DNA from: Fibrobacter succinogenes
GTDB taxonomy: Bacteria > Fibrobacterota > Fibrobacteria > Fibrobacterales > Fibrobacteraceae
NCBI GenBank assembly: GCA_902795385.1
Contig: CADBLC010000001.1
Span: 1 to 39,041, forward strand
Direction of reading: 5' to 3'
DNA length: 39,041 bases
In this document: positions 17,301-29,282 of the stretch, in pieces
How positions within the stretch are numbered: the stretch's first letter is position 1
Layout: each line of letters starts with the position of its first letter
Made by a program: the position numbers and the translations under genes
The notes under the pieces: generated by a model
What the model saw: the letters and a program-made list of their open reading frames with translations, nothing else
Told to the model about the DNA's origin: nothing
Database searches by the model: none

Positions 17301-19838
17301 GATTACAACGTGTTCAATCCATCTTTTATCCGCAAATGAAGAATAAGTTGTAAAGCCCAACCACTCTGCAAACTCTTTGTCATAAAAATCAATCGAATAA
17401 TCTTGTAAAGAAACAAAACGAATCTGGCCATTGAACGACTCAACCATGAGCTGGGCCGGCTCATAGACAATTCCCTTTTCTGCGTCTTCAATTTCCCAAC
17501 GGAATTTTGAATTAATCATTTCTTGCAAGCAAGAGGCTATATCCCCAACACTCGATGCAGAATTGAAATAACCAGGAGCAAACTCTATTTCACAAGACTC
17601 ATTGCCCACAGTAACCGTCATTTTTGCAGAATTATTATAACGTTCGGGAGGAAGTTCATTGGAAACCCAAATCGTCTTCACGTTGTCTTTTGTAAAGGTA
17701 ACTGAATTGTTCCATTCTTCAATTTGTTTACCGTCTTTTAAAAGTACAACTTTTAAGTGTTCCTTAAAATCATTGCCGATGGATTCTATTACAGAATCAT
17801 CATTTGAATCAATCAATACTGCAAGGTATTCATTGTTTAATGCCACAACCTTTACATTCTTGACGTCATCATTTTTACTACGGCCCAAGACCGATGTCAA
17901 AAGTGAGGCTAGTCCTTCAATGTCATTCGCAACAAAGTTTTTTGTCTTCTGATCAAGATATTTATAATCAATTTTAGCTTTATCCGCATTTGCATTCCAC
18001 TTTATAACAAAGCCATAATTTGGCGTAACACCATCAAATTCCGGATATTTTGACAAATCGAGTTGAACCGCAGAGCTAGAAGCACTATACAAAACATAGG
18101 AACATGTATCAGCATTTACGCATGAAGTAAATCGGTTTCCACACTGACCCTTTACATAATTCGCATATGTAGAAAGATCAGACCATCCACCATAATAATG
18201 ATCCATCTTTTCGGCCACAATTGCATTCGCACCAATAATGGATCCGAGTTGTTCGTCGTATTGGCCTAAACCCAATTTATCTAATTCACTAGTACTCTTC
18301 GCCTTTTCGGATTCAACAAAAGGAACGAGCAATTGGAAACTTAACGTAGCCCTAGAACTTACGGTAACAGAGGGTATTTCCAGTACCTCCACATTAAAGA
18401 AATTTTCCAACCATTCCTTCGAAAGGGCGACCGAAGAATCCTTCTCGGAAATAACCAATTCCACAGGGATGCTTATGCCTTTAGCGTCAACAGAAATCCT
18501 CTTGTCTTGACGAACTTCATTATTCCAGTACTTATTGTTCTTAAGGCGCGTTACTAATTCTTGGAGAGTTGCAGGAGGTTCATTGATGATATTGGACAAC
18601 AAATCCGACAAATTCAGAAGACTATGGGCATTTCTCGCTAGACACCCACTGAAGTCTACATTATTGTCATAATAATCCCCACTCTGGATAGCGGACAATT
18701 TGGACGATATTCCCTGGAGTTTCTCCAGAACCTTGCCCATGGAGAATGTATTAAAACGTTCGATTGAAGTGTGATTCCATTTACCCTCGCTATTTTCATC
18801 AAACGACAGAGCCCTTTCGTATGTGTATTCTTGATTTTTGACTCCACTGACAAACGTATCACCAATCTTTTTTATGTTATAGTGCAATTTTGCCCCAAAG
18901 CCGTCATCAACCTCGTTAGCCGTAATTAAGTCGCCAACTGATTCTTCCCACTTTGAAGATATCGTCCATTTAGAGACGATATTCACTAACGAATTCGAGA
19001 CATTCGTTTCTGACAAGCCTAGAACGCCATATTTCGCTTCAAATTCGGGCGAGCTAGCCTCCTTGAATTTAGTGGAAAAAGTTGCTACAGACTCCAAATC
19101 AACCTTATTCTCGGCACGTCCGTCAAGAACAAATGTGAATTCCAGCTTTTTGCTATATTCCGAAAAATCAAAATCCGATTCTATTTCAACATTTGTACTT
19201 GACAGATCTGCGGTAAATAAATCCTTAGCTTTTTTTATATCAGTGTCTTTCTTGTTATAGCGATCTAATTGTGATGAATAATTAGAAGACCATGCAACTG
19301 GATAATCCGCATTCAAACGAGTAAAAGAGCAAGATGCATCAAATACGATTTCACCATTTGAATTCAAATTGGCTTCATACGTAATATCAGCTTTAAAGTA
19401 CTTTAATTCAGGGTGAAGAGCCCCATTCTTGACCTTCTCTTGCAACTCTGCGGCACTAATCTTTTTCCCATCAGTGGGCAATTTCTTTTGAATATCGCTC
19501 TTGATTGCGTCTATTATCACTTTGGAGCTATCGAGACCGTACTCTCCATAGTATGTATTGTCAAATTGAACCAAATCCGATATTTTCGCGCGTTCATTCG
19601 TTGTTGTATTCTCATTCTTCACATAAAGCGCGGTAATAAACTGATTCACATTCGCGTTAGATTGCAGCGTTGACGAACTCCAAAGAGGCGCACTTGAAAG
19701 ACATTCGAGTTCATTAGTCCAATCCGACACAGAATAGGCGGTCGAAGCATCCATCAAAAGACGAGGTTCCAGGGCCTCAATCTTGTATTTCTTTCCAACA
19801 TACTTTTTCATAGCATTCCTTTTTTGCTGCTTCGACAT
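8319..19838 (-). CDS. Giant LEPR-XLL / RTX calcium-binding surface or secreted protein (3839 aa)
   Basis: Very large, probably exported adhesin-like protein. There is no Sec signal peptide. The N-terminus is basic and holds LEPRLLMD at 23-30, the LEPR-XLL motif known from the starts of huge repetitive exported proteins. Residues about 737-1232 contain four diverged tandem repeats ending in LGF/LGL. A canonical EF-hand loop (DPNDDGKVRLTE) occupies 2381-2392. RTX (hemolysin-type) Gly-Asp repeats of the GGxGxD kind span about 2537-3005 and bind Ca2+ in known proteins. A Calx-beta-like module (about 3330-3435) follows. An Ala/Pro-rich linker near 3700 precedes a C-terminal beta domain of about 110 residues. 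AGGAG upstream supports the ATG at 19838, but an in-frame ATG at codon 10 also has an AAGGA before it. The gene sits 21 bases after a FISUMP lipoprotein gene and 10 bases before the M50 fusion gene. It is AT-richer than both export operons, except at its 3' end. Confidence 0.9.
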   Translation of the reverse strand: MSKQQKRNAMKKYVGKKYKIEALEPRLLMDASTAYSVSDWTNELECLSSAPLWSSSTLQSNANVNQFITALYVKNENTTTNERAKISDLVQFDNTYYGEYGLDSSKVIIDAIKSDIQKKLPTDGKKISAAELQEKVKNGALHPELKYFKADITYEANLNSNGEIVFDASCSFTRLNADYPVAWSSNYSSQLDRYNKKDTDIKKAKDLFTADLSSTNVEIESDFDFSEYSKKLEFTFVLDGRAENKVDLESVATFSTKFKEASSPEFEAKYGVLGLSETNVSNSLVNIVSKWTISSKWEESVGDLITANEVDDGFGAKLHYNIKKIGDTFVSGVKNQEYTYERALSFDENSEGKWNHTSIERFNTFSMGKVLEKLQGISSKLSAIQSGDYYDNNVDFSGCLARNAHSLLNLSDLLSNIINEPPATLQELVTRLKNNKYWNNEVRQDKRISVDAKGISIPVELVISEKDSSVALSKEWLENFFNVEVLEIPSVTVSSRATLSFQLLVPFVESEKAKSTSELDKLGLGQYDEQLGSIIGANAIVAEKMDHYYGGWSDLSTYANYVKGQCGNRFTSCVNADTCSYVLYSASSSAVQLDLSKYPEFDGVTPNYGFVIKWNANADKAKIDYKYLDQKTKNFVANDIEGLASLLTSVLGRSKNDDVKNVKVVALNNEYLAVLIDSNDDSVIESIGNDFKEHLKVVLLKDGKQIEEWNNSVTFTKDNVKTIWVSNELPPERYNNSAKMTVTVGNESCEIEFAPGYFNSASSVGDIASCLQEMINSKFRWEIEDAEKGIVYEPAQLMVESFNGQIRFVSLQDYSIDFYDKEFAEWLGFTTYSSFADKRWIEHVVIATSHDETKKVQMDEKIASAKFGTKVGEKDLWAEVPSSFELIFEVDGKKKTIKLEKSDFESKKWASDAAKILQDALNEGFEWSADNVGLYVISHNDKISFKSSKEFVVGCTDESVLNWLGFYSFSQNKEGEKTVYEILKYKEIYSDKVDITYFQNIDADESPKVYVDILFDDDDRLNVNFDSAEMVEMKSLHALAKYMNARIKESHEEGFDVPDVEVSVKDGRLCFRSVENFTIYFGNIADAELLGFYPVVEKVDASGLFKVSTPSESIEYKDVLKTSAIEVCVNVHEESKEHQEKYELDLSSIVDACQKKNAAVKDCTVDEILQEIVLKLNKAIGEKQGDKDAVEYFAVDGLKIVAKKEYEIKYRIQKISDINGFTIASMLGLCGEYGSDPEKERDEFFVDANLIDDAIEDDAMVPLFQNFNLTIANVIVNGNINIAARYGVFGERIKGNITGLNCVTTIGADKTKTRLKGIKEPTYNYGFLAGFGTPKFEVKVDPTMKDIDVAFSAKAVIRAGRMEWMPNEELVKKESLNTAECGFHHKNYSMAHLYDDFSSKMCAKWDSYFFGAKAQSNLDKIQLPILGKSILEIMGLRNKFEELDNYFQRIKSGSNVQEIIDYIEKEIGMGVTAKYDYRVRVVKENGVERNVKETVLRLTFTWNKKISNNLLELDSLNLGREDFRLNSLLRAYIDATISFTGQVNIYAAEGAISFKVLDPIIGGNISVKASHISADMEVNAVEKVDGKDVLKQAEFQVESQSGKDSSISLKAKINGKNLDLDLNGTLYVYKYGADAGLISLNCNSSINSTPQTKVLCKDAAGQVYAYGGIQEGLLTLDLSNVRNLELKQTNLFDKLRNSVDGLSNTVRRLQSSLNSALVKGNIRHIPLVGDSIVNIGDSLSFLNTDFIEPLRKYVYKKTDGMNAYAVTEKLYTILCDYIATGTDSLEMCGDGNSAWWAQKEFNRYYHGIQFYESEDEAYWHLRLSVNYTLDKNADFDLGFPGLGLRADGGVALELKMMLDIGFGISKKEGAFILLSNGYDKKNNPETDYSDVEQKVKGESVGTAHIGDDLKIMLTVKPSASIEGSLGFLAMSAKVDAGQVKPIILGIDLNDGDKSDKVALNDWENDKKAKTTIRMNELLSGISTQANLRGEINLDVPMTLGIGGYSKSAPHIDTSLSVGWASDFGKGMGDLKAVALNDIVFDCGSFVKNTIGSVIQKVNKVIDPVRPLIKFLQTEIPVLNKLPAGKVRITVLDLVKKFGNKKKMNFGFLDDIIEIDNMVGKLKEYTNKGIYIGSWDIKNIDNLNMDEDLKKAGQDFIDGKISDAEKFVSEKLSKLNLKKSFVDLKSAVDTVSSIAGNVDSYVDYAKEAISDKIEDVKSAAEKWMLPSPGADSSKTEIQKPEFGGNWIFPIIDNPETEIMKILVGGHADLVVFDMKPLKFSFDWSKSFPIIGPLCADVGFSFGVDIDLCFGYDTYGIERWAQSNFKNVAALIDGFYVADWDPLSGDDVTEVVFHSGVVAGASLGGRFGVNVGLNLNVNLDLKDPNDDGKVRLTEMAEMLSLNPLDTFDVSASISARAFAYLDVFFYRKEWTLWSSGAFDLFKTASEHDNLATRSGDSLVVNVGEFAKENSVAELSEDGADDIEVIVTGSNKADIIFNNSKNKNHREYKVNEENLCIYAGEENDKIKISSKVKAEFNIFVYGGNGDDSIDLSGLNLAEGYVAVVVGSSGTDVIKGASSGTNYLFGDEGDVKFTPDSKGKKKKTLQYAIAYPSDNASGGTDVILGASIKDEKKPQPKNYIFGGAGNDFIVGGSGESTIFGDYGRLSRDSRGFDVADHHDSFDDGGDDLVYGGGAIDHIYGGAGNDFIHANGGDDAIDGGQGNDVIYGGSGDDAIHGGDGTDVIFGDMPFKSNMVIARSDNANGAQLPYTLVPHDLKGMVDANDKYISPFFTAADGGKFKADTIGVFDFAKKFVSNNASILSSIGNVLDGVNSWEELDDNKYGEVPSNKGSDVIDGGNGADVIFGDDGRNATDKVQAKLTGGDDIITGGAGNDFIDGDAGSDKIDGGSGMDIVYGGRGNDTLDGGIGNDFIFGDDGWTDYEKETVKDGQWFNKNGVIDGAKEALGDVIVSIGQTFGISNEAKSKTGGGDDTIIAGNDSDFVDGQSGNDTYRVQFVGGSKDVFTNVMDSGNDKNDSMKALGTLDGDNILIRSSDKGLGMIGMMPEDNGKGTVERVNYWYAGENRGVENISVETGLGNDVVTVSSTLSSMSIDAGGGNDEINIGRLYKNGLPKVNALDSFNDSVIKTSEGLLDSGNTHALFVEGGAGTDVFEILHSNSALSLHGGLEGVTYNIRNFVDENGDFIVNKGLISLTGKGNEYARDVKCEYICRMATLNYYATTLEDVVYSCDSILSSCCELQTIGIDEFHFFGGEGTNHYYVMGSEKLFYNKMFVDLEAGENVLYVGSDLTESQYRTQIEKLRKNRAKTIELITDGLDNIPIMSEGETFEYGIKLSQKPQGKVSVKISVPLTSDLEERNKNSGILLVDEKGNYCSSIVKEFDSNNYNSIQKIKIVYVGDNYVDDNDVAFLLQDIETSSPADKVDFMMNIPILLSDESSGDIMAFNSPMCDKLGFDVVNSGVILCDRPEIDLTKLSLASLRFTNEAGDVSYISTSKTSGSDYWYKAEKNKIYIYSASTDELVPITGRLDYVNMLKHYSQNPAYYGLDNCFILNSSTFQLAYAHGSIEYGINYSTNCLQLVVGEDRYDLSETPSTTGYYVKVSGNQFVIYSGETGLPVEVTGFLHFAASPDGVAAIEYTSKACNTAIGGSRSRIIYQNGLPFTRVGDVRSYEAIESGIDTYSPENGVVQIDLWREASSSATTPAPAPAAAPAALAAASSDAAESSTEVELVDGMPGFVAVGAGETVRIKIGASNIASASTVSLMVNSEDGNSLPALTWSWDDSSKKRRSVEEDTDLAYQVNISDVASEDDFIYVYLHAAKACQFVASAFVG
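10825..12230 (-). repeat. RTX nonapeptide repeat region inside the giant protein
   Basis: About twenty Gly/Asp-rich units with the pattern GGxGxDxhx are visible in several blocks, for example GGAGNDFIHANGGDDAIDGG and GGQGNDVIYGGSGDDAIHGG, separated by longer inserts. Such repeats form a Ca2+-bound parallel beta roll in known RTX proteins. At the DNA level they give recurring ACCGCC/ATCATC tracts, which could be mistaken for direct repeats. Confidence 0.92.
12663..12698 (-). other. EF-hand calcium-binding loop in the giant protein
   Basis: The 12-residue loop DPNDDGKVRLTE (residues 2381-2392) matches the canonical EF-hand spacing: acidic or Asn at 1, 3 and 5, Gly at 6, a hydrophobic residue at 8 and Glu at 12. 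It lies about 150 residues before the RTX block and adds a second kind of Ca2+ site. Confidence 0.7.
16145..17630 (-). repeat. Four diverged tandem protein repeats (about 120-135 aa each)
   Basis: Four consecutive segments of the giant protein share a layout. Each has an N-terminal beta pair, an amphipathic helix of the type ASCLQEMINSKF, KILQDALNEGF, ALAKYMNARI or EIVLKLNKAIG, a strand pair such as GQIRFVSLQDYSIDF or GRLCFRSVENFTIYF, and an end in WLGF, WLGF, LLGF or MLGL. Approximate spans are 17335-17630, 16920-17210, 16550-16830 and 16145-16500. The pattern loosely recalls the flagellin/hook IN motif, but I do not recognise a named family. Identity is low, so the boundaries are approximate. 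Confidence 0.65.
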
Positions 19839-19859: not shown

Positions 19860-21047
19860 TTAGTTTGCCTTATAATTTTTCACGCAACGCACCGACATGG
19901 CATTTGTCTTTCGGCGTTCATTGTCGCTCTCGAACCACTTTGCCAAATTAAAGATAATGGCATACGCACCGATGTCGTTATACTCCTCGGGAAGCCACAT
20001 ATATCCATATTCCGGCATCATTTCATATTCCCTCGAATTAACGGTGCTTAGCAATCCTGCAGGCAGTGCAGAAAAACCGTAATCATCATCATTTCCAAAA
20101 ATTCGCGAAATATGATCTCCTATATAGGTGTCACCAACAATCATTTCCCATTCATTTTTGTTAAGGACATGCCATCCTTCCGGGCAAATTCCCTGAACCT
20201 GCAAATCGTCCCACTCATAAGACGCCTGCTTCGGGGCGATTGTTTTTGAGCATCCACTTGTCGTTCCCATTGCCACGGAATCGCAGGCTCGCGGTAGCCC
20301 CATAGCTTCGCTCCAAGAGTAAAGGCCACCAAACCCATTATCGCAATACCAAGCATCGTCGTTATAGCAGTACTTTTCGACAACGTCATCCTTAAATATG
20401 GTATCATCAGACATTATCTGCTTACCATAATTAAGATTCTGCGCAAACACCTCTAATTTCGGGCTGTCACCCATTTCAATTATTTTATAGGTTTGACTAT
20501 CCCTCTTGTCTATAAAGGTCGCATATTGTACATCCGGGTTAAACAAGCTATCCATCTGATAATGTTTGTTTTGAGACGCCGAGGAAGAGCTTATTTCCGT
20601 TTCAACCCATTTTCCATCATGACAAACTTCATAGATTTTTTTTCGTTTTGACACCATGAAATACCGGATATCTCCTTCCGTATCGCACACGTCATCTATC
20701 GTATCAAGAGGAACAATATCCAACGAATCCAGCGAAATACGGACGCTAGAGTTATTGACATCGCCCTTACTACTGGATGATACATTCTTGCTCGAGGAAG
20801 ATTCTTCTTCGTCGTCAGGGGAATACGAAGAACTTGAGGCTTCCGAATTCTCTTCCGAGCTACTAGACGCAACCGAAGACATTTCCTGGTCTTCCGAGGA
20901 AATTCCGCTATCCGTACTTTCGATTTCCGAGGTGTCGCCGCTTTGCACGGGGTTCGAATTTTTTCCGTTACTGCAGGAAGAAACGGCAAAGGCTAACGCG
21001 AAAAGGGCAAAAAAAGCCCACTGCTTTTTCAGAAAGGAAGTTCTCAT
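19860..21047 (-). CDS. FISUMP-domain lipoprotein, first gene of the giant-protein operon
   Basis: Lipoprotein of 395 residues from the ATG at 21047. A longer frame starts at 21062, but the 21047 start puts the basic signal peptide at the N-terminus with GGGGATA just upstream. The lipobox is AVSSC with Cys25. A long acidic Ser-rich linker follows (about 26-100). The C-terminal two thirds form a FISUMP domain: an AQNLNYG-type motif, paired YCYND and YCDNG Cys motifs, GLYSWSEAMG, CPEGWHVLNKNEWEM, GFSALPAGLL and an MSVRCVKN ending. FISUMP is a Fibrobacter-enriched family of unknown biochemical function, with a fold probably related to the FGE-sulfatase/C-type-lectin type. The stop is 21 bases before the giant gene, so the two are probably co-transcribed; a surface partner or anchor of the giant is a reasonable guess. 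Confidence 0.88.
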   Translation of the reverse strand: MRTSFLKKQWAFFALFALAFAVSSCSNGKNSNPVQSGDTSEIESTDSGISSEDQEMSSVASSSSEENSEASSSSYSPDDEEESSSSKNVSSSSKGDVNNSSVRISLDSLDIVPLDTIDDVCDTEGDIRYFMVSKRKKIYEVCHDGKWVETEISSSSASQNKHYQMDSLFNPDVQYATFIDKRDSQTYKIIEMGDSPKLEVFAQNLNYGKQIMSDDTIFKDDVVEKYCYNDDAWYCDNGFGGLYSWSEAMGLPRACDSVAMGTTSGCSKTIAPKQASYEWDDLQVQGICPEGWHVLNKNEWEMIVGDTYIGDHISRIFGNDDDYGFSALPAGLLSTVNSREYEMMPEYGYMWLPEEYNDIGAYAIIFNLAKWFESDNERRKTNAMSVRCVKNYKAN

Positions 21048-21067
21048 TCTATCCCCATACAAAAATG

Positions 21068-21706: not shown

Positions 21707-23179
21707 ATGAAGAACAAACTATTGTCCGCCTTTATCGCGGCCTCCTTCCTCTTTTTTGCAGGATGCTCCGTCTCCGATTCCGTAGACAGCGAGTACTCCA
21801 AATGGACATTCTCGGGAACCGTCATCGATTCCGAGAACGGCCAGGGCCTGAGCAAAGTGGTCATCACCTACCAGGATTCCGATGGCGACATACAGACCGT
21901 CGAGACCGACGCTAGCGGCAACTTCTTTATAAAAGAGCTCCCCTACGGCTCCCTGAATTTTTCCTTTAACTATAAGAGTATCAAGGACAAAGACACTCTT
22001 TACTACACCCCGAAAGTCATCAATATAGGCTCGTCGGGCGAATCCAGCCGCATGGAAGGGGTCATCGCCGGTACAGCCCTGATTGTCCGCATGAGCCCGC
22101 TCAACGCCAAGCTCGAGGGCGAATGCTACCTAATCGAAGAATCCACCGAAAAGAAGATTCCCGTTTCCAAGGCCAAGGTTTACCTTGTCCACCAGGACAC
22201 CGCCTTCGTGAACCTTTCCCCCAAGAGTTTCGAGGCCCAAACAGACTCCTTGGGCAAATTTAACTTTACAAAGCTTCCGGCCGACACGGGACTCGTCCTC
22301 CGGATTGAAGCCGTCACCCACAAGAACCTGCGCTACATTTCGAACGACATTGACCTTCCTCGCCTCAAGTCCACATCCACGACAAACCTCGGGCGCATCT
22401 ACCTTTCTCGTGACACCCTCGTCAGCGCAGCCCCGCTCATCAAAAAATCCAACGTGATGGACGCGAACCGAGTCGGACTCGAGAACGTGTCGCAACTGTC
22501 GACTCCGTACTATATCTTCAAGGAAAACCTCAAGACCGACAACCTTTCAGTCACGGTAAAAGCAGACACCGTCTCTATCGCAGTTGTCCCGAGAGTCAAC
22601 AAGGACACGCTTTTCCTGGACCACACCGAAGCCTTCCCGCCTGCAGCCGAAATCACGGTAAAGATTATCGCCTACGGCAAGGATTCCGGCGAAAGGCTCG
22701 AGGTGGAGCTCAGCGGAACATCCGCTTTCAAAACCGGCATGGGCATTTATGCGGTCACCAGCAATACCTGGCCCAGCAACAAGAATTTCAAGGCGTCGTT
22801 CGGAATTTCGGACACCATCTGGGTCAAGTTCTCCAAGACGCTGGCGAAAAACACCGACCGCATCCAATGGAACTACACTAGCGGCGTCGACTGCACCATC
22901 TACGGAAACGGCTACTACGCCAACTCCAAAACCTGGATCAACAAAGATACACTATTCGTCCAAATGCTCGAAGGCATCCTCATGAACAGGGACCGCGGCG
23001 ATTCCGTGGGCATGAACATCACCGTCTACGCCGACGACGGCTCCTACATGAAAGGATTCGTTGTCCGTACGGAACTGGTCGTTCCGCAGCCGACAGCCAA
23101 GAATGATGACGAAGAAGATGATGATGCCGATGCAAATGCTGATGGCGATAGTGCCAACGTAACTTTCGTACAAGACTAA
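21707..23179 (+). CDS. Lipoprotein with carboxypeptidase-regulatory-like domains, first gene of export operon
   Basis: A 490-residue lipoprotein with lipobox FFAGC (Cys20). Residues about 34-95 form a CarboxypepD_reg-like beta sandwich (WTFSGTVIDSENGQGLSKVV, then TDASGNFFIKELPYG). A second copy spans about 120-235 (KIPVSKAKVYLVHQD, then TDSLGKFNFTKLPADTG). The rest (about 240-465) is beta-rich without a recognised family. The C-terminus has a highly acidic tail (NDDEEDDDADANADGD) that could bind Ca2+. It starts the operon and is followed after 6 bases by the HlyD-type adaptor gene, so it is probably an accessory lipoprotein of the export complex, perhaps at the outer membrane. An AAGGG lies 10-12 bases before the ATG, a weak ribosome site. 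Confidence 0.85.
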   Translation: MKNKLLSAFIAASFLFFAGCSVSDSVDSEYSKWTFSGTVIDSENGQGLSKVVITYQDSDGDIQTVETDASGNFFIKELPYGSLNFSFNYKSIKDKDTLYYTPKVINIGSSGESSRMEGVIAGTALIVRMSPLNAKLEGECYLIEESTEKKIPVSKAKVYLVHQDTAFVNLSPKSFEAQTDSLGKFNFTKLPADTGLVLRIEAVTHKNLRYISNDIDLPRLKSTSTTNLGRIYLSRDTLVSAAPLIKKSNVMDANRVGLENVSQLSTPYYIFKENLKTDNLSVTVKADTVSIAVVPRVNKDTLFLDHTEAFPPAAEITVKIIAYGKDSGERLEVELSGTSAFKTGMGIYAVTSNTWPSNKNFKASFGISDTIWVKFSKTLAKNTDRIQWNYTSGVDCTIYGNGYYANSKTWINKDTLFVQMLEGILMNRDRGDSVGMNITVYADDGSYMKGFVVRTELVVPQPTAKNDDEEDDDADANADGDSANVTFVQD

Positions 23180-23185
23180 CGCACC

Positions 23186-23986
23186 ATGCGCAACCATATT
23201 ACAGCGACACTTTTCCTTTTTTCGTGGGTAGCCGTTGCAACTGCCGGCGGTTATGACGGCATCACGGAACCCATCGAACAAGCAAAAATCGGCTTCACCA
23301 TCCCCGGGAAAATCGACAGCATCTGGGTCAAGGAAGGCGACATGGTCCACAAGGGCGATACGCTCATCAACCTCGTGAAAACCGAAGACGAGCTGCGCGT
23401 CCGCGTTACCAAGATTGCCGCCGAAGACGTTTCCGAAATCGCCTCCGCCAAGGCGAAAATGGACACCTACGAAAAGGACTATAAGGCCATCAAGAAACTT
23501 TTCGAGACGAGTTCCTCCGTAAGCGAAGAACAGGTCTGGGAAAAAGAGCTCAGCTACAACGTCGCCAAGGCGGAGTGGGAAGCGGCCAAGGCTCACAAGA
23601 GCAAGGATTCCCTAGAATACAGTCTCGCACAGGCGCAACTCGAAAAGCAGTACCTGATATCGCCCTTCGACGGCGAAATCGTCTCCATCACCAAAAACAA
23701 GAGCGAGAGCGTCGAGGCGCTAGCCCCGGTTTTGGAGATAGCCAACGTGCGCACGTGCCGCCTTACCGCCTACATCATCGCAAACAAGGCAAAAAGTCTC
23801 AAGGTTGGCCAGCAGGTAAAACTACAGCTCAACGGAAACCAGAAGGTAAGCGTCAAGAAAGGAAAAATTGAGTTCATCTCGCCGTTGGTCGACAAGGCCA
23901 GCATGCTGCGTACAGTCAAGGTCATCTTTGACAACAAAGACAAGTCCATAGAACCCGGCGTCACAGGGAAAATCCTGCTTCAATGA
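23186..23986 (+). CDS. HlyD-family periplasmic adaptor (short, no membrane anchor)
   Basis: Periplasmic adaptor of 266 residues. A signal peptide (about 1-20, cleaved near ATAGG) replaces the membrane anchor usual in HlyD. The lipoyl half-motif KIGFTIPGKIDSIWVKEGDM (about 32-51) is followed by a helical hairpin (about 65-150). The second half-motif (QYLISPFDGEIVSITKNKSE) and a C-terminal beta barrel follow, ending at VTGKILLQ. This is the standard order for a membrane fusion protein that docks on a TolC channel. Its ATG is 6 bases after the lipoprotein gene, and its stop overlaps the TolC start (ATGA), so translation of the two is coupled. Confidence 0.9.
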   Translation: MRNHITATLFLFSWVAVATAGGYDGITEPIEQAKIGFTIPGKIDSIWVKEGDMVHKGDTLINLVKTEDELRVRVTKIAAEDVSEIASAKAKMDTYEKDYKAIKKLFETSSSVSEEQVWEKELSYNVAKAEWEAAKAHKSKDSLEYSLAQAQLEKQYLISPFDGEIVSITKNKSESVEALAPVLEIANVRTCRLTAYIIANKAKSLKVGQQVKLQLNGNQKVSVKKGKIEFISPLVDKASMLRTVKVIFDNKDKSIEPGVTGKILLQ

Positions 23987-25461
23987 GATACGTTTTCCCC
24001 ATACTGCTCCTTTCGGCGGTCTTTGCGCAAGCACAGGATTCCCTGTACCTGTCCTTCGACGATGCCCTGAACACGGTCATCGCGCACAACTCCGACGTAC
24101 AAGAAGCCAAGTACGAATGGATTAGCCGCAAGGAGATGTCGTCGGGGGCTTACGGCGACTTTGAACCGCAGCTAGTCGGGCGAATGAACAAGGAACGCGC
24201 CGACCGCCCCAGCGCCCTCTTTACCGAGACCAAGGACGAGTACAAGATTAGCGTACAGGGGAACCTGCCCACGGGTACGCAATACGACGTCGGTTTCAAC
24301 CAGGCGACCTACACCCACAGCGACTACACCTCGGAACTCTACTTTGGCGGGGAACTGCGGCAGCACCTCCTCAAGGATGGCCCCATCTATTTTGCGCCCA
24401 CCAACAATCTGAGGCAAGCCAAGCTGCAACAGGAAGTAGCCTACCAAAAGTACAGAAACACCCTGACCGACATCATCGAGAACTTTTGCGACGCTTACTG
24501 GAACTACTACTACTCGCAACAGATTCTCGTATTCGCGACCAAGTCTGCAGATGTAGCCAAGGAAATCGTTGACGACGCCTCCAAGCGACTCTCGCTCGGC
24601 CTGCTTTCACCGCTGGACTACCAGAAGGCGGTTGCCGAGTATTCCGACCGCGAAAGCGCGAGGCTCGAAGCCCTAGACAAGCTCCGCAGCGCAAGGCTCA
24701 CCCTTTTGCTGAGCCTTTCTTCGTCGGAATACATGCAGGACACGCGTCCCATCGCCATCCACCCCGATTTCAGTATCGATTCCTCCATACTCCTCGATAC
24801 AAAGGACCTTCAGGACTCCATCAAGATGATGCATCCTGTCTACTTGTACCAGAAGGCAGACCTGGAATTGCGAGAAACCGTACTGAGCGCCCACAAGTCG
24901 AGTTTTTTACCCACGCTAGACCTTATCGGCAGCTACGGCATCCGCAGCCGCGACGATAACGCACGCACCGCCGTACACAACTTCAAGGAGACAAAGCGCA
25001 GGCAGACCGTTCTCGCCGGGGGTATCGAGTTCGTTGTCCCGCTTTTCGCCAACATCAAGGAACGTCACCAGATGGCCGCCGAAAAGGCCAACGTACGTTC
25101 TTCCGAAATGCGCCTGTCCCTCGTACTGGACAAGCTCTTGGAAGAATTCCGCATATTGCGCAAAAGGACAGACGAAGTGAGGAGCCAGTTCCAGTACGGC
25201 GAAACATCCGTAGACTTCCATAAGAAAGAGCTCGAAGAAGAATTCAAGAAAATGAAACTGGGCAAGAGCAACTACCACCAGATTTTCGATATCGAAGAAG
25301 ATTTGCAAGAAGCCCAGAGACGGCATCTCGAGACCATCCGGATGCTCCATGTGATCGACATCCGTGCATCCAAGGCCAAGGGAAAGCTCCTTTTACAGAA
25401 CAAGCTCGAAAAATGGCACGACGGGAAACTGTTGCTGCGGGAGGACCTGCTAAGTGAGTAA
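23983..25461 (+). CDS. TolC-family outer-membrane channel protein
   Basis: A 492-residue outer membrane factor. Residues 1-17 are a signal peptide. Two long helical repeats with TolC-type motifs follow: FDDALNTVIAHNSDVQEAKY at the start, a ...RLSLGLLSPLDYQKAVAEY segment, AHKSSFLPTLDLIGSYG and a second helical arm ending QRRHLETIRML. The protein is long for the family but typical of Bacteroidota/Fibrobacter versions. The ATG overlaps the stop of the upstream HlyD gene by four bases, and its own end overlaps the next gene by eight bases. In context it is the exit duct through the outer membrane for the substrate served by the three adaptors here. Confidence 0.92.
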   Translation: MRYVFPILLLSAVFAQAQDSLYLSFDDALNTVIAHNSDVQEAKYEWISRKEMSSGAYGDFEPQLVGRMNKERADRPSALFTETKDEYKISVQGNLPTGTQYDVGFNQATYTHSDYTSELYFGGELRQHLLKDGPIYFAPTNNLRQAKLQQEVAYQKYRNTLTDIIENFCDAYWNYYYSQQILVFATKSADVAKEIVDDASKRLSLGLLSPLDYQKAVAEYSDRESARLEALDKLRSARLTLLLSLSSSEYMQDTRPIAIHPDFSIDSSILLDTKDLQDSIKMMHPVYLYQKADLELRETVLSAHKSSFLPTLDLIGSYGIRSRDDNARTAVHNFKETKRRQTVLAGGIEFVVPLFANIKERHQMAAEKANVRSSEMRLSLVLDKLLEEFRILRKRTDEVRSQFQYGETSVDFHKKELEEEFKKMKLGKSNYHQIFDIEEDLQEAQRRHLETIRMLHVIDIRASKAKGKLLLQNKLEKWHDGKLLLREDLLSE

Positions 25462-26893
25462 TCCAGAAATGAACGTGGACCCGAACGTCCTTATTAAGGC
25501 CCTGCAGGGAGCGTTGAATTCTTCGAACAAGAAGATCGTGCAGCTCAATTCCGTCGTGGATATTGCACGCAAAGTCAACGAGACAAACAAGTTCAAGACC
25601 GCCTTGCTCGCCTTCGCCGGCGAAATCGCCGACAGGTTGCACGCCGAACGCGTGAGCATCGGATGGCTAAAGCATGACTACATCCAGCTCAAGGCCATAA
25701 GCCACACCGACCGCTTTGAAAAGAAAATGCAGATTGTGCAGGATTTGGAAGCGGCCATGGAAGAAGCCTACGAACAGGATGCCGCCATACTCTTCCCGGC
25801 ACCCGAGAACGGTTCCGCCCTGACGCGCTCCCACGAGCAGTATTCAACAAAGCACAATGCGGGCAACCTGCTCTCGGTCCCTATACGCCATAACAACGAC
25901 ATCATGGCGGTGGTCACCTGCGAAAGGGCCAAACAGCCCTTTACCGATATTGACGCCTCGGAAATTTTCCTTGTCGCCACCCTTACCAGTGCGCGCATCA
26001 AGGAACTGTACCAAAAAAGCAACTGGTTCGGCGCCCGCATGGTACGCCAGACCCGGAACCTTTTGGCAAAGTGCCTCGGCTTCGAACATACGTGGGCAAA
26101 ATTCTTCGGCATTCTCGCAGCCTCCTTCGCCGTATTCGCGGCGATATTCCCCCTCCAATACAAGGTGAACGCCCCCGCCATTCTCAAGACGGACAAGGTG
26201 ATGTACCTTACCGCCCCCTTCAACGGGTTTATCGACAGCGTTTCGGTAAAGCCCGGAGACATCGTGTACAAGGGGCAGGAACTTATGCGGCTCGACCAAA
26301 AGGAACTCAAGCTCGAAGAAGCGAACCTCCTTGCCGAAGAGCAGAACAACCGCCGCGAAATCCAGAAAGCACAGGCCAACCAGATGCTGGCCGACATGAG
26401 AATCCACCAGGCCCGCCTGGCACAGACTCTGGCCAAATTGCAGACGGTACGCTACAAGCTTTCCAAATCTGTCATATACGCAACGGCTGATAGCGCCATC
26501 ATCATCGAGGGCGACCTGCAAAAGAGAATCGGCGCCCCCGTAAACCAAGGTACAGAACTGTTCCAGATGGCACTCATCGAGAACATCTATGTCGAAGTGG
26601 ATGTCGCCGAAGAGGAAATCAAGAACGTCAAGACTGGTGTCAAGGGATTCCTCGCACTCAAAAGCCGTCCCGACTTGACATTTGAATTCAATACGGACAG
26701 GATTACCCCGACCGCCACGGTCAAGGAACAGGAAAACGTATTCCCCGTCAGGGGCGAACTCCTTGGCAGGGCACCGAACTGGTTCCGTCCCGGAATGACA
26801 GGCATCGCCAAGATTCTTGCCGGCAAAAAAACGTTGTGGTGGATTCTGAGCCACCAGGCACTGGACTACTTGCGCCTCAAGCTCTGGTGGTAA
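25454..26893 (+). CDS. GAF-domain / HlyD-type inner-membrane adaptor fusion
   Basis: A 479-residue two-part protein. Residues about 40-190 form a cytoplasmic GAF domain (TALLAFAGEIADRLHAERVS, then LLSVPIRHNNDIMAVVTCER), a small-molecule or signal-sensing fold. A single transmembrane segment (about 217-235) follows, then an HlyD adaptor: first lipoyl half (YLTAPFNGFIDSVSVKPGDI), a coiled-coil hairpin (about 275-335), second half and a barrel to about 455. The C-terminal tail is Trp-rich (TLWWILSHQALDYLRLKLWW) and may be membrane-associated. The GTG start at 25454 is chosen because GGGAGGA sits 8 bases upstream and the frame overlaps the TolC gene by eight bases; an ATG five codons later is possible. 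The fusion could couple a cytoplasmic signal to assembly of the export channel (inference). Confidence 0.88.
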   Translation: MSNPEMNVDPNVLIKALQGALNSSNKKIVQLNSVVDIARKVNETNKFKTALLAFAGEIADRLHAERVSIGWLKHDYIQLKAISHTDRFEKKMQIVQDLEAAMEEAYEQDAAILFPAPENGSALTRSHEQYSTKHNAGNLLSVPIRHNNDIMAVVTCERAKQPFTDIDASEIFLVATLTSARIKELYQKSNWFGARMVRQTRNLLAKCLGFEHTWAKFFGILAASFAVFAAIFPLQYKVNAPAILKTDKVMYLTAPFNGFIDSVSVKPGDIVYKGQELMRLDQKELKLEEANLLAEEQNNRREIQKAQANQMLADMRIHQARLAQTLAKLQTVRYKLSKSVIYATADSAIIIEGDLQKRIGAPVNQGTELFQMALIENIYVEVDVAEEEIKNVKTGVKGFLALKSRPDLTFEFNTDRITPTATVKEQENVFPVRGELLGRAPNWFRPGMTGIAKILAGKKTLWWILSHQALDYLRLKLWW

Positions 26894-26908: not shown

Positions 26909-28057
26909 TTACTGATAGTCTTTCACGCAGCGGAGAGACAAGCCCCTATTCTCATCAACGGCATCATACGTGACGTCCTTGCTGTCGTATGTCATGCCAT
27001 AGGATTGGGCGCTAGTATTATCTATAAAATTCGATGTCCAGAACAAGGCTATCGTAGATTCACCATAGAACGAACCATACGAGTAATAGCCTCCCGGCAG
27101 TGCCGCAAAGCCAAGATCATCGGTTCCTTTGACACCTTCATTCCATCCGTCTTTCGAACGCAGCATCGCACCAGACGAATCTTCTTCCTTTTCCAATTCA
27201 AACAACAGCAACCATTCAGCCGTCGAAGAAACATGCCAACCCTCTGGGCACAAACCATGGAACGGATTGGCTACGTTGCATTTTTTCCCGTAGCCGCATT
27301 CTTCTTCTGTCCTGTTGAGCACCGCTGCCCACGTATAGAGCCTGCCGTATTTTTTGCAATTTTCTTCTTTATTATCGTAGCACCAGCTCTGTTTTCCGTC
27401 ATTAAACGCATAATTCAGATTCTCCGTCATCCATGTCATGGCGTTTTCACCTTCGCCAATAACAGCATAACGGTACACCTGATTATCACGTACATCTACA
27501 AAGTATTTGTCTAAATCAAACAAGACCCCTTGAACGCAGAATTTTTCTTCGGGATTGTACGCAGAATCGAGACATAAAGCCGAGTATAGCTTCGACTCTC
27601 TTCCATCGGAACATTTGAGAACAATAACTCCGGCAGAATCGCTAGCTATTCCGCAATCGACTTTAGAGGAATCGCCCCTTTCGCCTTTTTCGCCCATGGG
27701 GCCCGTATAACCCGGAATTTGGGCGGAATCACCTTTCACGCCCTTTTCTCCAGAGGCACCGTCCTTTCCGTCCGAACCAGCGAGGCCGTCGTCACCAGCG
27801 CCACCCTTCAATTTTACCCAGTCGTTTCCATCGCAAAAATACGACGCTCCGGAATCGGCAACAAACACCTTTTTTCCGACAGCCGACGTATCGCACGACT
27901 CCGTCGAAAGCTTTTTCCCGGCAGCAAGGACTTGATCGGAATCGTCATAAACTTCGATGACCTTATTATCGCCATCACCGCAAGCTACAAGCGACAAAAA
28001 AAGCAAACAGAATGTTGCGCTACAAAACAACCCTAAAAATTTTTTGTTGTAGCGCAT
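26909..28057 (-). CDS. Collagen-like FISUMP lipoprotein (second gene of pair)
   Basis: A 382-residue lipoprotein starting at the ATG at 28057. A longer frame starts at 28072, but GGAGG lies just before 28057 and the signal peptide begins there. The lipobox is SLVAC with Cys26. Residues about 30-84 form a small Cys-containing module (CDTSAVGKKVFVADSGASYF). Residues 85-129 are collagen-like Gly-x-y triplets. The FISUMP domain follows (about 185-382: MTWMTENLNYAFNDG, YGRLYTWAAVL, GLCPEGWHVSSTAEW, LGFAALPGGYYSYG, LRCVKDY). Its ATG is one base after the TGA of the upstream paralogue, so the two form an operon. It converges on the GAF-HlyD gene with only 15 bases between and no visible terminator. 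Confidence 0.9.
   Translation of the reverse strand: MRYNKKFLGLFCSATFCLLFLSLVACGDGDNKVIEVYDDSDQVLAAGKKLSTESCDTSAVGKKVFVADSGASYFCDGNDWVKLKGGAGDDGLAGSDGKDGASGEKGVKGDSAQIPGYTGPMGEKGERGDSSKVDCGIASDSAGVIVLKCSDGRESKLYSALCLDSAYNPEEKFCVQGVLFDLDKYFVDVRDNQVYRYAVIGEGENAMTWMTENLNYAFNDGKQSWCYDNKEENCKKYGRLYTWAAVLNRTEEECGYGKKCNVANPFHGLCPEGWHVSSTAEWLLLFELEKEEDSSGAMLRSKDGWNEGVKGTDDLGFAALPGGYYSYGSFYGESTIALFWTSNFIDNTSAQSYGMTYDSKDVTYDAVDENRGLSLRCVKDYQ
27671..27805 (-). repeat. Collagen-like Gly-x-y stretch in the downstream FISUMP lipoprotein
   Basis: Residues 85-129 are mostly Gly at every third position (GGAGDDGLAGSDGKDGASG, then GPMGEKGERGDSS), with one interruption at SAQIPGY. GEKG and GKDG triplets typical of bacterial collagen-like proteins are present. 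It could trimerise into a stalk holding the FISUMP domain away from the membrane. Confidence 0.8.
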
Positions 28058-28058
28058 G

Positions 28059-29282
28059 TCATTCCTCCACATAATCTTTCACACAACGCACCGAAAGAGC
28101 ATCGTGCTTTAGCATTCTAAAATCTACTCCGTCATCCATTCTTGGTTTTGAATGATAAAGACGTACGCTAAAAGCACTTGTTCCATCATAATTAGCATAA
28201 GTCCATAATCTAGCTTTTTGACCGATCTCACTAAATACACGGACGTCTTTAGAAACACTCATAAATCCAGCCGGTTTTACAGCCAAGCCCCAAACATCCG
28301 TACCATTGCCACTAGCACCATCATAGTCGTCCCATCCCTCTGAGGATTTGAGTTTTCCACCAATGTAATTGTAAGTTGTTGAGGAGGCATCTACCAATGC
28401 ACTCCATTCCGCAGTCGTTGTCAAATGCCAGCCTTTCGGGCAAACTCCCCTAAACTTAGTCGTCGTTGAACGCACATTATCATCACCCGAGGCATAATAG
28501 CCGCATCCCTCGCAATCCGAACTGAACTTGGCAGCACTATCCGCTGCCGCCGACCACGTATAGAGACGGCCATATTCCTTGCAGTTTTCAGGATCGTCAT
28601 CATAACAATAGCTCTTGGCGGAACCCTCGTTGTAATCGTAATTCAGGTTTTCAGCCATCCAAACACGATTGCCGATTTCGACAAAACCATAAACTTGGCC
28701 GTCTCTCTCATCGCACAACTGGTTTGCAGGATTATACGGTTTTCCGCCACAAGAAAAGATTTCCCCATTCACACAAGCCGCTTTTTCCGGGTCAAACGGG
28801 GTATAGCCACATATAGACTTGTACATTTTCACGGAATCCGCATTCTCCCCATCGCCGCACTTGATAACGACAACGCCATCCTTATCACTTGCAATTTTGC
28901 AGCTCGTCCCCGCGACACCATCATCGCCCTTGGGGCCCTGGGGGCCTTTTTCGCCCGGAATGCCTACCCCATCATCACCCTTGGGGCCATTTTCTCCCTT
29001 TTCACCATCTTTTCCGTCTTTGCCGGCCTTGCCCGGTTCGCCCTTCAGCGAAGTCCAGCTTTTGCCGTCACACATATAGAATTCCGTAGAGTCCACAACA
29101 TAAAGTAGTTCACCCAAGCTCGTAGAATCACAAGTCTGATTTTTCAGGCTATCCCCTGCAGCCAACACGGCGATGTCGTCGTTATGGTATACGGTAGTTT
29201 CGGTAACCGAATTGCTGCAAGCAACCAAAAACAGCATTCCGACTAAGCTAATAAATTCAGCACAAAAGAACTTGTTTTTCAT
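28059..29282 (-). CDS. Collagen-like FISUMP lipoprotein (first gene of pair)
   Basis: A 407-residue lipoprotein, paralogous to the next gene along its whole length. The ATG at 29282 is preceded by GGGGA. The lipobox is FLVAC with Cys22. Residues about 25-80 match the small module of the downstream paralogue (VLAAGDSLKNQTCDSTSLGE). Residues 81-125 are a collagen-like stretch, followed by a Cys-bearing segment. The C-terminal FISUMP domain (about 200-407) has VWMAENLNYDYNEG, YGRLYTWSAA, GVCPKGWHLTTTAEW, WGLAVKPAGFMSV and LSVRCVKDY. It heads a two-gene operon that diverges from the second GH9 gene. Surface display with an adhesion or recognition role is inferred from the domain type. Confidence 0.9.
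   Translation of the reverse strand: MKNKFFCAEFISLVGMLFLVACSNSVTETTVYHNDDIAVLAAGDSLKNQTCDSTSLGELLYVVDSTEFYMCDGKSWTSLKGEPGKAGKDGKDGEKGENGPKGDDGVGIPGEKGPQGPKGDDGVAGTSCKIASDKDGVVVIKCGDGENADSVKMYKSICGYTPFDPEKAACVNGEIFSCGGKPYNPANQLCDERDGQVYGFVEIGNRVWMAENLNYDYNEGSAKSYCYDDDPENCKEYGRLYTWSAAADSAAKFSSDCEGCGYYASGDDNVRSTTTKFRGVCPKGWHLTTTAEWSALVDASSTTYNYIGGKLKSSEGWDDYDGASGNGTDVWGLAVKPAGFMSVSKDVRVFSEIGQKARLWTYANYDGTSAFSVRLYHSKPRMDDGVDFRMLKHDALSVRCVKDYVEE
28908..29042 (-). repeat. Collagen-like Gly-x-y stretch in the upstream FISUMP lipoprotein
   Basis: Residues 81-125 keep Gly at every third position over about 15 triplets with one shift near GVGIPG. They are rich in GKDG, GEKG and GPKG, charged triplets that stabilise hydroxyproline-free bacterial collagen helices. 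Confidence 0.85.

What the first reader, a model, noticed from the sequence alone, without database searches (positions are those of the whole stretch)
26909..29282. Tandem paralogous lipoproteins with collagen-like stalks and FISUMP heads
Both proteins have a lipid anchor, a small Cys module, about 15 Gly-x-y triplets and a FISUMP domain. They look like duplicated, possibly trimeric, stalked surface receptors. Collagen-like stalks joined to FISUMP heads are, to my knowledge, little described. The triplet region differs in detail between copies while the layout is kept.
Basis: partly seen in the sequence, partly recalled or inferred. Interest (0 to 1): 0.5.

Follow-up and report, generated by a model that had tools for sequence, protein, structure and literature searches.

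The report
Collagen-stalked lipoproteins with trimerising caps
Two neighbouring genes of a Fibrobacter bacterium encode lipid-anchored proteins that look like three-stranded lollipops: a cap that resembles the trimerising piece of animal collagens XV and XVIII, a short collagen rod, and a lectin-like head that may grip sugars.

Summary
Two adjacent minus-strand lipoprotein genes (A 28059-29282, B 26909-28057) each encode a lipobox, a 45-residue Cys module, 14-15 Gly-X-Y triplets with one break, a Cys-rich linker and a FISUMP head. A run of 9 triplets was reached in 0 of 20000 shuffles of each protein.

The fusion recurs across Fibrobacterota: 51 distinct ones were gathered. In stretches from seven near-complete genus genomes, 24 of 39 collagen ORFs carry FISUMP, in 4 of the 7 genomes.

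The main new point is the 'small Cys module'. Its model (pLDDT 88.8) best matches trimerising modules: phage Mtd N-terminus, collagen XV/XVIII trimerisation domains, phage hyaluronidase N-terminus. Two relatives in collagen-bearing genes pass Pfam's Collagen_trimer cut-off; the window copies do not. The head model resembles C-type-lectin folds, Legionella Lcl among them.

Best reading: trimeric, membrane-anchored lollipop adhesins, built like Lcl but with a lipid anchor, an N-terminal trimer cap and a FISUMP head. Trimerisation, surface exposure and ligand (plant glycan likely) are inferred, not shown. New variant of a known kind.

The parts
28059..29282 (-). gene A, 407 aa collagen-FISUMP lipoprotein
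   Evidence: ORF; PF09603 and PF01391 over cut-off
29217..29282 (-). A signal peptide with lipobox LVAC, Cys22
   Evidence: read from sequence; C22 invariant in 11 fusions
29043..29183 (-). A Cys module (residues 34-80), proposed trimerisation cap; Cys51 and Cys71
   Evidence: AF2 model pLDDT 88.8, matches; relatives match PF20010
28902..29042 (-). A collagen-like stalk, 9 + 6 triplets with one break
28719..28901 (-). A Cys-rich linker (hairpin plus C-x-YNP/FDP-x-C type motifs)
   Evidence: sequence; strands in the model
28074..28718 (-). A FISUMP head, C-type-lectin-like fold
   Evidence: TIGR02145 residues 189-403; VIA matches
26909..28057 (-). gene B, 382 aa collagen-FISUMP lipoprotein (start moved from 28072)
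28063..28068 (-). probable ribosome-binding site of B (GGAGGA) overlapping the end of A
   Evidence: sequence
27980..28057 (-). B signal peptide with lipobox LVAC, Cys26
   Evidence: read from sequence
27806..27946 (-). B Cys module, proposed trimerisation cap
   Evidence: HMM match; row of A3
27668..27805 (-). B collagen-like stalk, 9 + 5 triplets with one break
   Evidence: PF01391 22.9 bits, under cut-off
27503..27667 (-). B Cys-rich linker
   Evidence: sequence, alignment
26918..27502 (-). B FISUMP head
   Evidence: TIGR02145 157 bits

Best explanation
A and B are co-transcribed outer-membrane lipoproteins that each form a lollipop-shaped homotrimer (or, less likely, a mixed trimer). After lipidation of the Cys, the 45-residue module brings three chains together and sets the register. 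The Gly-X-Y segment then zips from the N-terminal end into a triple helix about 13 nm long with one flexible break. The Cys-rich linker ends the rod, and three FISUMP heads with a C-type-lectin-like fold are displayed for multivalent binding, most likely to plant-wall glycan or to surface protein partners. Shown here: the domain order, the recurrence of the architecture, the likeness of the module to known trimerising modules, and the likeness of the head model to the C-type-lectin fold. Inferred: co-transcription, trimer formation, surface exposure, glycan ligand.
For: Domains. Module: the 17 best rows of VIA on its model (Z 5.0 to 3.2) are Mtd variants, collagen XV and XVIII trimerisation domains (three of them inside engineered constructs) and phage hyaluronidases; the first other row has Z 3.0. 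Foldseek ranks collagen XV and XVIII domains first, probability 0.92 and 0.93. PF20010 Collagen_trimer matches 15 of 48 module rows, best E 2.1e-6, and none of 24 shuffled rows; of 10 rows scanned singly all 10 match within profile positions 14-42, 2 over the cut-off. In 41 of 51 fusions the module ends within 12 residues of the first triplet run. Stalk: 132 Lys/Arg(Y)-Gly-Asp/Glu(X) pairs against 73.2 +/- 4.9 in 1000 shuffles (maximum 91) over 953 triplets. Head: Lcl C-terminal domain 8q4e Z 7.9, rmsd 2.7, 100 of 131 residues, among many C-type-lectin folds. Anchor: 45 of 51 fusions show a lipobox-like motif, with Asp at +3 in 34 of the 45.
Against: No oligomer was modelled or measured. A's own module is weak against PF20010 (E 0.18) and Mtd_N (E 0.14); the two PF20010 matches over the cut-off come from one array in one genome, and 9 of the 10 rows scanned singly are from that genome. 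In a more varied set only 2 of 9 modules matched PF20010, at E 0.05 and 0.16. Module Z values stay under 8, a level at which chance arrangements occur. Foldseek E-values are not significant for the module (0.26 or worse) or for the full model (0.83 or worse; the only C-type lectin I see in the 50 rows shown is rhodocetin, rank 15). The module also occurs in 17 FISUMP ORFs without collagen among the 80 loci, so it is not only a collagen cap. 8 of 51 fusions lack a recognised module. 29 fusions lie above their charge-pair shuffle mean, 7 below, 15 equal, and the fusions are related, so the total is not made of independent events. Fourteen or fifteen triplets with a break and no hydroxyproline may be only marginally stable at gut temperature (inference).
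Confidence: 0.65

Rival explanations
1. The Gly-X-Y region is only a flexible, monomeric spacer between the lipid anchor and the FISUMP head.
For: Short and interrupted stalk; AF2 gives pLDDT under 50 for residues 80-125, though a single-chain model says little about a triple helix; B's stalk is under the PF01391 cut-off; most FISUMP ORFs seen do without collagen (111 of 119 ORFs in 80 loci).
Against: Strict every-third-Gly phase, charge-pair enrichment, a module with trimerising look-alikes directly in front in 41 of 51 fusions, a stalk of 64 unbroken triplets in a genome of another family of the class.
Confidence: 0.18
2. FISUMP heads are not sugar binders but docking modules, a cohesin-like scaffold that holds enzymes or other envelope proteins; the collagen rods space the docking points. 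This differs from the best explanation in the ligand, not in the build.
For: PMC4704652 reports that TIGR02145 was suggested as a possible cohesin analogue (passage); a 1948-aa GH9 protein is transcribed divergently next door; very high copy number (119 matches in the own genome).
Against: Several fold matches are ligand-binding surface or secreted proteins (Lcl, Mtd, TvpA, snake and animal lectins), but formylglycine-generating enzyme and EgtB are matched as well, so the fold does not decide. No dockerin-like partner was looked for.
Confidence: 0.3
3. The heads are diversity-generating retroelement targets, and the tandem copies are variants made by mutagenic retrohoming.
For: Fib_succ_major and DUF1566 domains occur as such targets in human microbiomes (PMC4159848, passages); TvpA, Mtd and TaqVP appear among the fold matches.
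Against: No RVT_1 match in the own genome, which is about 75% complete; A and B differ all along their length, stalk included.
Confidence: 0.03
4. The Cys module is an unrelated small beta domain, and its likeness to collagen XV/XVIII and Mtd modules is a chance of small folds; trimerisation, if any, comes from the heads as in Lcl.
For: Small size, Z 5 or less, weak sequence scores for most members, hhalign probability only 13% against one collagen XVIII sequence.
Against: Register-true PF20010 matches over the cut-off in paralogues that carry collagen, none in 24 shuffled rows, and the best 17 structural rows are all of the trimerising kinds named above.
Confidence: 0.25

Closest known systems
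Legionella collagen-like protein Lcl (collagen stalk + DUF1566/Lcl_C trimeric head)
   Same: Collagen-like stalk in the middle, C-type-lectin-like head at the C-terminus; the Lcl head structure 8q4e is third of the fold matches; a published HHsearch comparison finds DUF1566 and Fib_succ_major similar (PMC4159848, passage).
   Different: Lcl is a type II secreted peripheral protein with a helical N-terminus (PMC11162425 passages); here a lipid anchor, an N-terminal beta cap and a FISUMP head. NCBIfam's Lcl model scores about 20 bits against a cut-off of 500. The paper's list of FCB relatives, as read in the passage, names no Fibrobacter; its supplement was not read.
Multiplexin collagens XV and XVIII, trimerisation domain (PF20010)
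   Same: Predicted fold of the Cys module (collagen XV 3n3f Z 4.8, rmsd 1.9, 42 of 53 residues) and in-register Pfam matches in relatives.
   Different: In animals the domain follows the collagen region (recalled); here it precedes it, and it carries two invariant Cys.
Phage Mtd N-terminal domain (PF18454) and phage hyaluronidase N-terminus
   Same: Small beta module in a trimeric phage protein (trimer state recalled); one relative of the module (L040) scores E 4.6e-5 against Mtd_N, under its cut-off (23.7 against 26.3 bits); fold matches Z 5.0 and 3.8.
   Different: Tail-fibre context, no lipid anchor. In 50,697 phage records only two matched protein A, over the head alone at 26% identity.
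Fibrobacter FISUMP proteins (TIGR02145, PF09603)
   Same: The head is a clear member.
   Different: Most members seen lack collagen; 8 of 119 FISUMP ORFs in the 80 loci carry it.
Scl1/Scl2 bacterial collagen-like adhesins
   Same: Charge-rich bacterial Gly-X-Y stalk.
   Different: LPXTG wall anchor (model names) and other heads (recalled); the scores come from the collagen stretch only.

Membership tests
FISUMP domain protein (TIGR02145 / PF09603) | score over the curated cut-off | tested here: met
   A 156 and B 157 bits against 41.65; 93.5 and 93.7 against 33.9
Collagen-like protein (PF01391) | score over the curated cut-off | tested here: inconclusive
   A 32.8 over 27.2; B 22.9 under it
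Collagen-like protein (PF01391) | Gly at every third position beyond chance | tested here: met
   run of 9 in each, 0 of 20000 shuffles each
Collagen-like protein (PF01391) | forms a triple helix | not testable with these tools
   only indirect: charge pairs, cap
Lcl family (NF046116) | equivalog score over cut-off 500 | tested here: not met
   A 19.7 and B 20.6 bits, collagen stretch only
Lcl family (NF046116) | Lcl_C/DUF1566 head | tested here: inconclusive
   Lcl_C weak in 4 of 11 fusions, best E 0.0093, not listed for A; 8q4e Z 7.9
Lcl family (NF046116) | trimeric lollipop | not testable with these tools
   no oligomer prediction available
C-type-lectin-like fold | head model superposes on C-type-lectin folds | tested here: inconclusive
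   VIA: TvpA Z 8.3, Lcl 7.9, FGE 7.6, snake lectins about 7; Foldseek over the whole model, nothing significant, rhodocetin at rank 15
Multiplexin collagen trimerisation domain (PF20010) | score over cut-off 23.8 bits, window copies | tested here: not met
   A's module 12.3 bits, E 0.18; not listed at E 0.1 for whole A or B
Multiplexin collagen trimerisation domain (PF20010) | score over cut-off, relatives of the module | tested here: met
   two modules of array L082, 28.0 and 28.1 bits
Multiplexin collagen trimerisation domain (PF20010) | fold | tested here: inconclusive
   Z 4.8 to 4.1, rmsd 1.9-2.8; Foldseek first ranks but E 0.26 or worse
Mtd N-terminal domain (PF18454) | score over cut-off 26.3 bits | tested here: not met
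   A's module 12.6 bits; best relative L040 23.7 bits
Diversity-generating retroelement target | reverse transcriptase in the genome | tested here: inconclusive
   no RVT_1 in the own genome, about 75% complete
Outer-membrane lipoprotein | lipobox at the end of a signal peptide | tested here: met
   LVAC in A and B, read from sequence; lipidation and sorting not testable
Cohesin analogue | binds a dockerin-like partner | not tested
   suggestion cited in PMC4704652

The most novel reading that the evidence does not exclude
Fibrobacterales have their own family of N-terminal collagen trimerisation caps that shares ancestry with the trimerising domain of animal collagens XV/XVIII and with phage fibre caps (Mtd, hyaluronidase). 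It is used to display a large, fast-diversifying repertoire of lectin-fold FISUMP heads on collagen rods, with tandem copies that in several arrays keep cap and rod while the heads diverge or are swapped.
Probability: 0.3. Interest if true: 0.7.

Novelty: new variant of a known kind. Interest (0 to 1): 0.5.

Why it matters
Fibrobacter degrades cellulose without cellulosomes and carries dozens to over a hundred FISUMP domains whose role is open; 54 in S85 (PMC4704652 table and text passages). A lollipop with a known type of trimer cap gives a testable role, multivalent display of lectin-fold heads, and a soluble design (cap + rod + head) that can be expressed. For collagen biology it suggests that a trimerising fold solved in animal collagens and phage proteins also starts bacterial collagen rods. 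For biomaterials it offers a compact natural N-terminal trimer cap.

Tried and rejected
DGR origin: no RVT_1 in the own genome. Sequence relatives in the PDB: the head profile gave two matches at E 0.77 and 1.2 that I judge unrelated; whole protein A gave collagen-type chains and one unrelated hypothetical protein, all at E 0.097 or worse. Foldseek on the full 407-residue model found nothing better than E 0.83; the VIA second look was used instead. hmmsearch of the module profile against PDB sequences is dominated by antibody chains; a Tribody chain, in the stretch that a collagen XVIII query also matches, is second at E 0.22, and the collagen XV domain is 21st at E 0.55. hhalign of the module profile against one collagen XVIII sequence gives probability 13% only. 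A tree of 81 heads did not resolve the place of A and B, had long branches and an unsettled bootstrap; it is used only to say that A and B are not shown to be sisters. The idea that the window pair shows 'conserved rod, diverged head' failed: A and B are 38% identical before the collagen, 52% in it, 40% in the linker and 45% in the head. The pattern holds for other arrays (L048, L082, L083), while the L074 pair, one member of which is cut (heads 94% against 84% before them), and one L083 pair (65% against 62%) go the other way. My first count of 53 fusions held two cut copies of genes already counted; the numbers here are the recount. The text of the F. succinogenes papers searched for the word has no 'collagen' in the main text (passages seen, no supplements), nor does a review of prokaryotic collagen-like proteins hold 'Fibrobacter' or 'lectin'. 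Paper searches: 'FISUMP', 'Fibrobacter'+'collagen-like', 'major paralogous domain', 'Fib_succ_major', F. succinogenes lipoprotein/adhesion terms, collagen XVIII trimerization domain + bacterial + phage terms, 'multiplexin'+'trimerization domain'+'bacteria', 'bacterial collagen'+'trimerization'+'lipoprotein'+'C-type lectin', 'Fibrobacter'+'outer membrane vesicles'+'major paralogous'. In the listings and passages I saw no description of this fusion or of its cap; only open-licence papers are held, and most listed papers were not opened.
Full report
What is there. The window is contig 1 of a 2.73 Mb, about 75% complete genome with 119 FISUMP matches; named relatives found by likeness to A are mostly Fibrobacter. 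Genes A (28059-29282, minus, 407 aa) and B (26909-28057, minus, 382 aa) lie head to tail. B's start at 28072 in the mechanical ORF list is probably too early: a GGAGGA site inside A's last codons serves the ATG at 28057, one base after A's stop, so the two are probably read from one message (inference). Each protein has a signal peptide ending in LVAC, a 45-residue module with two Cys, Gly-X-Y triplets (A 9 + 6, B 9 + 5), a Cys-rich linker and a FISUMP head. Residue shuffles never gave a run of nine (0 of 20000 each).

Recurrence. In the own genome 5 places match the collagen profile; 3 are collagen-FISUMP fusions: A, B and one on contig 88. Of 41 genomes, the own included, 38 have a collagen match at E 0.01. 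I took the stretches around all collagen matches listed for seven near-complete genomes of the genus. In these stretches 39 ORFs hold at least 8 triplets in runs of 5 or more; 24 of them carry a FISUMP domain by an HMM built from 30 domains of the own genome. At least two of the 39 are neighbours of a listed match rather than listed matches themselves, which favours tandem arrays. The fusions are in 4 of 7 genomes (3 of 5, 15 of 19, 3 of 5 and 3 of 4 ORFs) and absent in 3 (0 of 1, 0 of 3, 0 of 2); one ORF is cut by a contig end. In the named genome collection, the best 80 loci for a fusion alignment confirmed against A hold 119 FISUMP ORFs, 8 of them fusions, including a Chitinispirillia bin, a Fibrimonadaceae bin and a Fibrimonadales bin. 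Over all loci held, 51 distinct fusions were found after removing two cut copies, with 8 to 64 triplets, median 16. So the fusion is widespread in the phylum but patchy, and a minority of the FISUMP proteins seen.

The Cys module. In 41 of 51 fusions it ends within 12 residues of the first triplet run; 8 fusions lack it. An alignment of 48 copies (A3) keeps two Cys invariant and a Gly and a Trp nearly so. Pfam PF20010, the collagen trimerisation domain, matches 15 of 48 rows, best E 2.1e-6, and 0 of 24 shuffled rows. Ten rows scanned singly, nine of them from the genome with the strongest matches and one from another, all match PF20010 within profile positions 14-42, two over the curated cut-off. 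In a set chosen for variety, 2 of 9 modules matched PF20010 (E 0.05 and 0.16) and 2 matched Mtd_N, one at E 4.6e-5. Across whole genomes PF20010 gives a match in 3 of 41, over its cut-off in 1, and in none of 14 control genomes. The model of A's module has pLDDT 88.8. Its structural neighbours are Mtd, collagen XV and XVIII trimerisation domains and phage hyaluronidases, Z 5.0 to 3.2, before the first other row, an SH2 domain, at 3.0; Foldseek also ranks the collagen domains first, without significant E-values. These neighbours are trimeric (recalled for Mtd and hyaluronidase; named so in the entry titles for the collagens). In the full-length model the same stretch was already matched to the collagen XVIII and XV domains at Z 3.6-4.0. 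As a sequence family the module is found in 31 of 31 genus genomes and 63 of 120 genomes of the phylum, all 63 within the order. It also occurs in FISUMP ORFs without collagen (17), so it probably trimerises heads in general rather than collagen alone.

The stalk. Over 953 triplets of 51 fusions, Lys or Arg in Y followed by Asp or Glu in the next X occurs 132 times against 73.2 +/- 4.9, maximum 91, in 1000 shuffles of X and Y residues within each protein; 29 fusions lie above, 7 below, 15 at their mean. A and B have 3 such pairs each against 1.4-1.5. Such pairs are known to stabilise hydroxyproline-free triple helices (recalled). The fusions are related to one another, so the counts are not independent.

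The head. Residues 184-407 of the model match C-type-lectin-like folds: TvpA Z 8.3, Lcl head 8q4e Z 7.9 with rmsd 2.7 over 100 of 131 residues, formylglycine-generating enzyme 7.6, snake C-type lectins about 7, human CL-K1 4.8. Foldseek on the whole model gave no significant match. Lcl_C is weakly matched in 4 of 11 fusions, best E 0.0093. A published HHsearch comparison already relates DUF1566 and Fib_succ_major (PMC4159848, passage).

How it probably works. Lipidation holds the N-termini at the membrane; the cap trimerises and nucleates the triple helix from its N-terminal end; the rod, about 47 residues or 13 nm (0.29 nm per residue, recalled), lifts three heads off the membrane. After the lipobox Cys the fusions keep an acidic motif (Asp at +3 in 34 of 45, Glu or Asp at +4 in 34 of 45), which recalls the surface-export signal of Bacteroidota lipoproteins (recalled, untested). 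The heads would bind multivalently. The ligand is not shown. PMC4704652 lists TIGR02145 among 'other cellulose-binding proteins' and reports a 'possible cohesin analog' suggestion (passages). A FISUMP protein of F. succinogenes S85 has no value under G and values of 3 and 10 under MC and AS in a cell-envelope table, which I read as glucose and two celluloses (PMC4619616, table passage); it is not known to be a collagen fusion. A GH9 protein is encoded divergently beside A, a weak hint at plant-wall use.

Tandem arrays. Elsewhere in the genus several arrays keep cap and rod while heads diverge. In L048 the first 120 aligned codons agree in every amino acid and every 4-fold site compared (one copy is cut at the locus edge and begins after its signal peptide); the heads are 59% identical with 4-fold sites 57% the same. 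In L082 and L083 three pairs with 65-73% identity before the head have heads of 34-37%. Not all pairs do so, and A and B do not. This looks like head swapping or gene conversion of the 5' part and deserves its own study.

Known or new. The layout collagen stalk + lectin-fold head is known from Lcl, for which trimer, lollipop shape and glycosaminoglycan binding are shown, with relatives reported in the FCB superphylum (PMC11162425, passages and outline). The window proteins are not Lcl: the Lcl equivalog model is far from met. New here, as far as my searches go, are the FISUMP head on the rod, the lipid anchor and the N-terminal cap of multiplexin/Mtd type. Hence: new variant of a known kind, interest 0.5.

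Noticed in passing
window 8319-19838 (-), with 19860-21062 (-), 6149-8308 (-), 21707-26893 (+): A 3839-aa protein with RTX calcium-binding repeats directly follows a third FISUMP gene (in which no collagen or cap was found); around it lie HlyD-type adaptors, one fused to GAF and one with a weak M50 match, and an outer-membrane efflux protein: it looks like a secretion locus for a giant exoprotein.
   Followed up: partly
L048, L082, L083: Tandem collagen-FISUMP arrays with conserved cap and rod and strongly diverged heads; in L048 120 aligned codons agree down to 4-fold sites.
   Followed up: partly
L042, L065, L071, L085, L092: Other long interrupted collagen proteins of the genus, with alternating triplet runs and two-Cys hairpin modules and a different C-terminal domain; L042 shows an 'LRHAARP' stretch that recalls histidine phosphatases. 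No family scan was made.
   Followed up: no
L031, L060, L073: Collagen run followed by an unrelated C-terminal region kept between genomes, perhaps transglutaminase-like by eye; no family scan was made.
   Followed up: no
L034, L037: Collagen segments separated by a 'GKSAYELAVAxGFTGTEAEWLASLKG'-type module, two copies in L034 and one diverged copy in L037.
   Followed up: no
L046 (other family of the class): A collagen-FISUMP fusion with 64 unbroken triplets and no recognised Cys module, but a similar W-ending hairpin-like stretch in front of the rod.
   Followed up: no
L167, L188: FISUMP heads 40% and 33% identical to A in records labelled Treponema sp. UBA3870 and a Bacteroidales bin.
   Followed up: no
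LR756501.1, LR756503.1: Two 735 kb uncultured phage records encode a distant relative of the FISUMP head (26% identity, E 3e-9).
   Followed up: no
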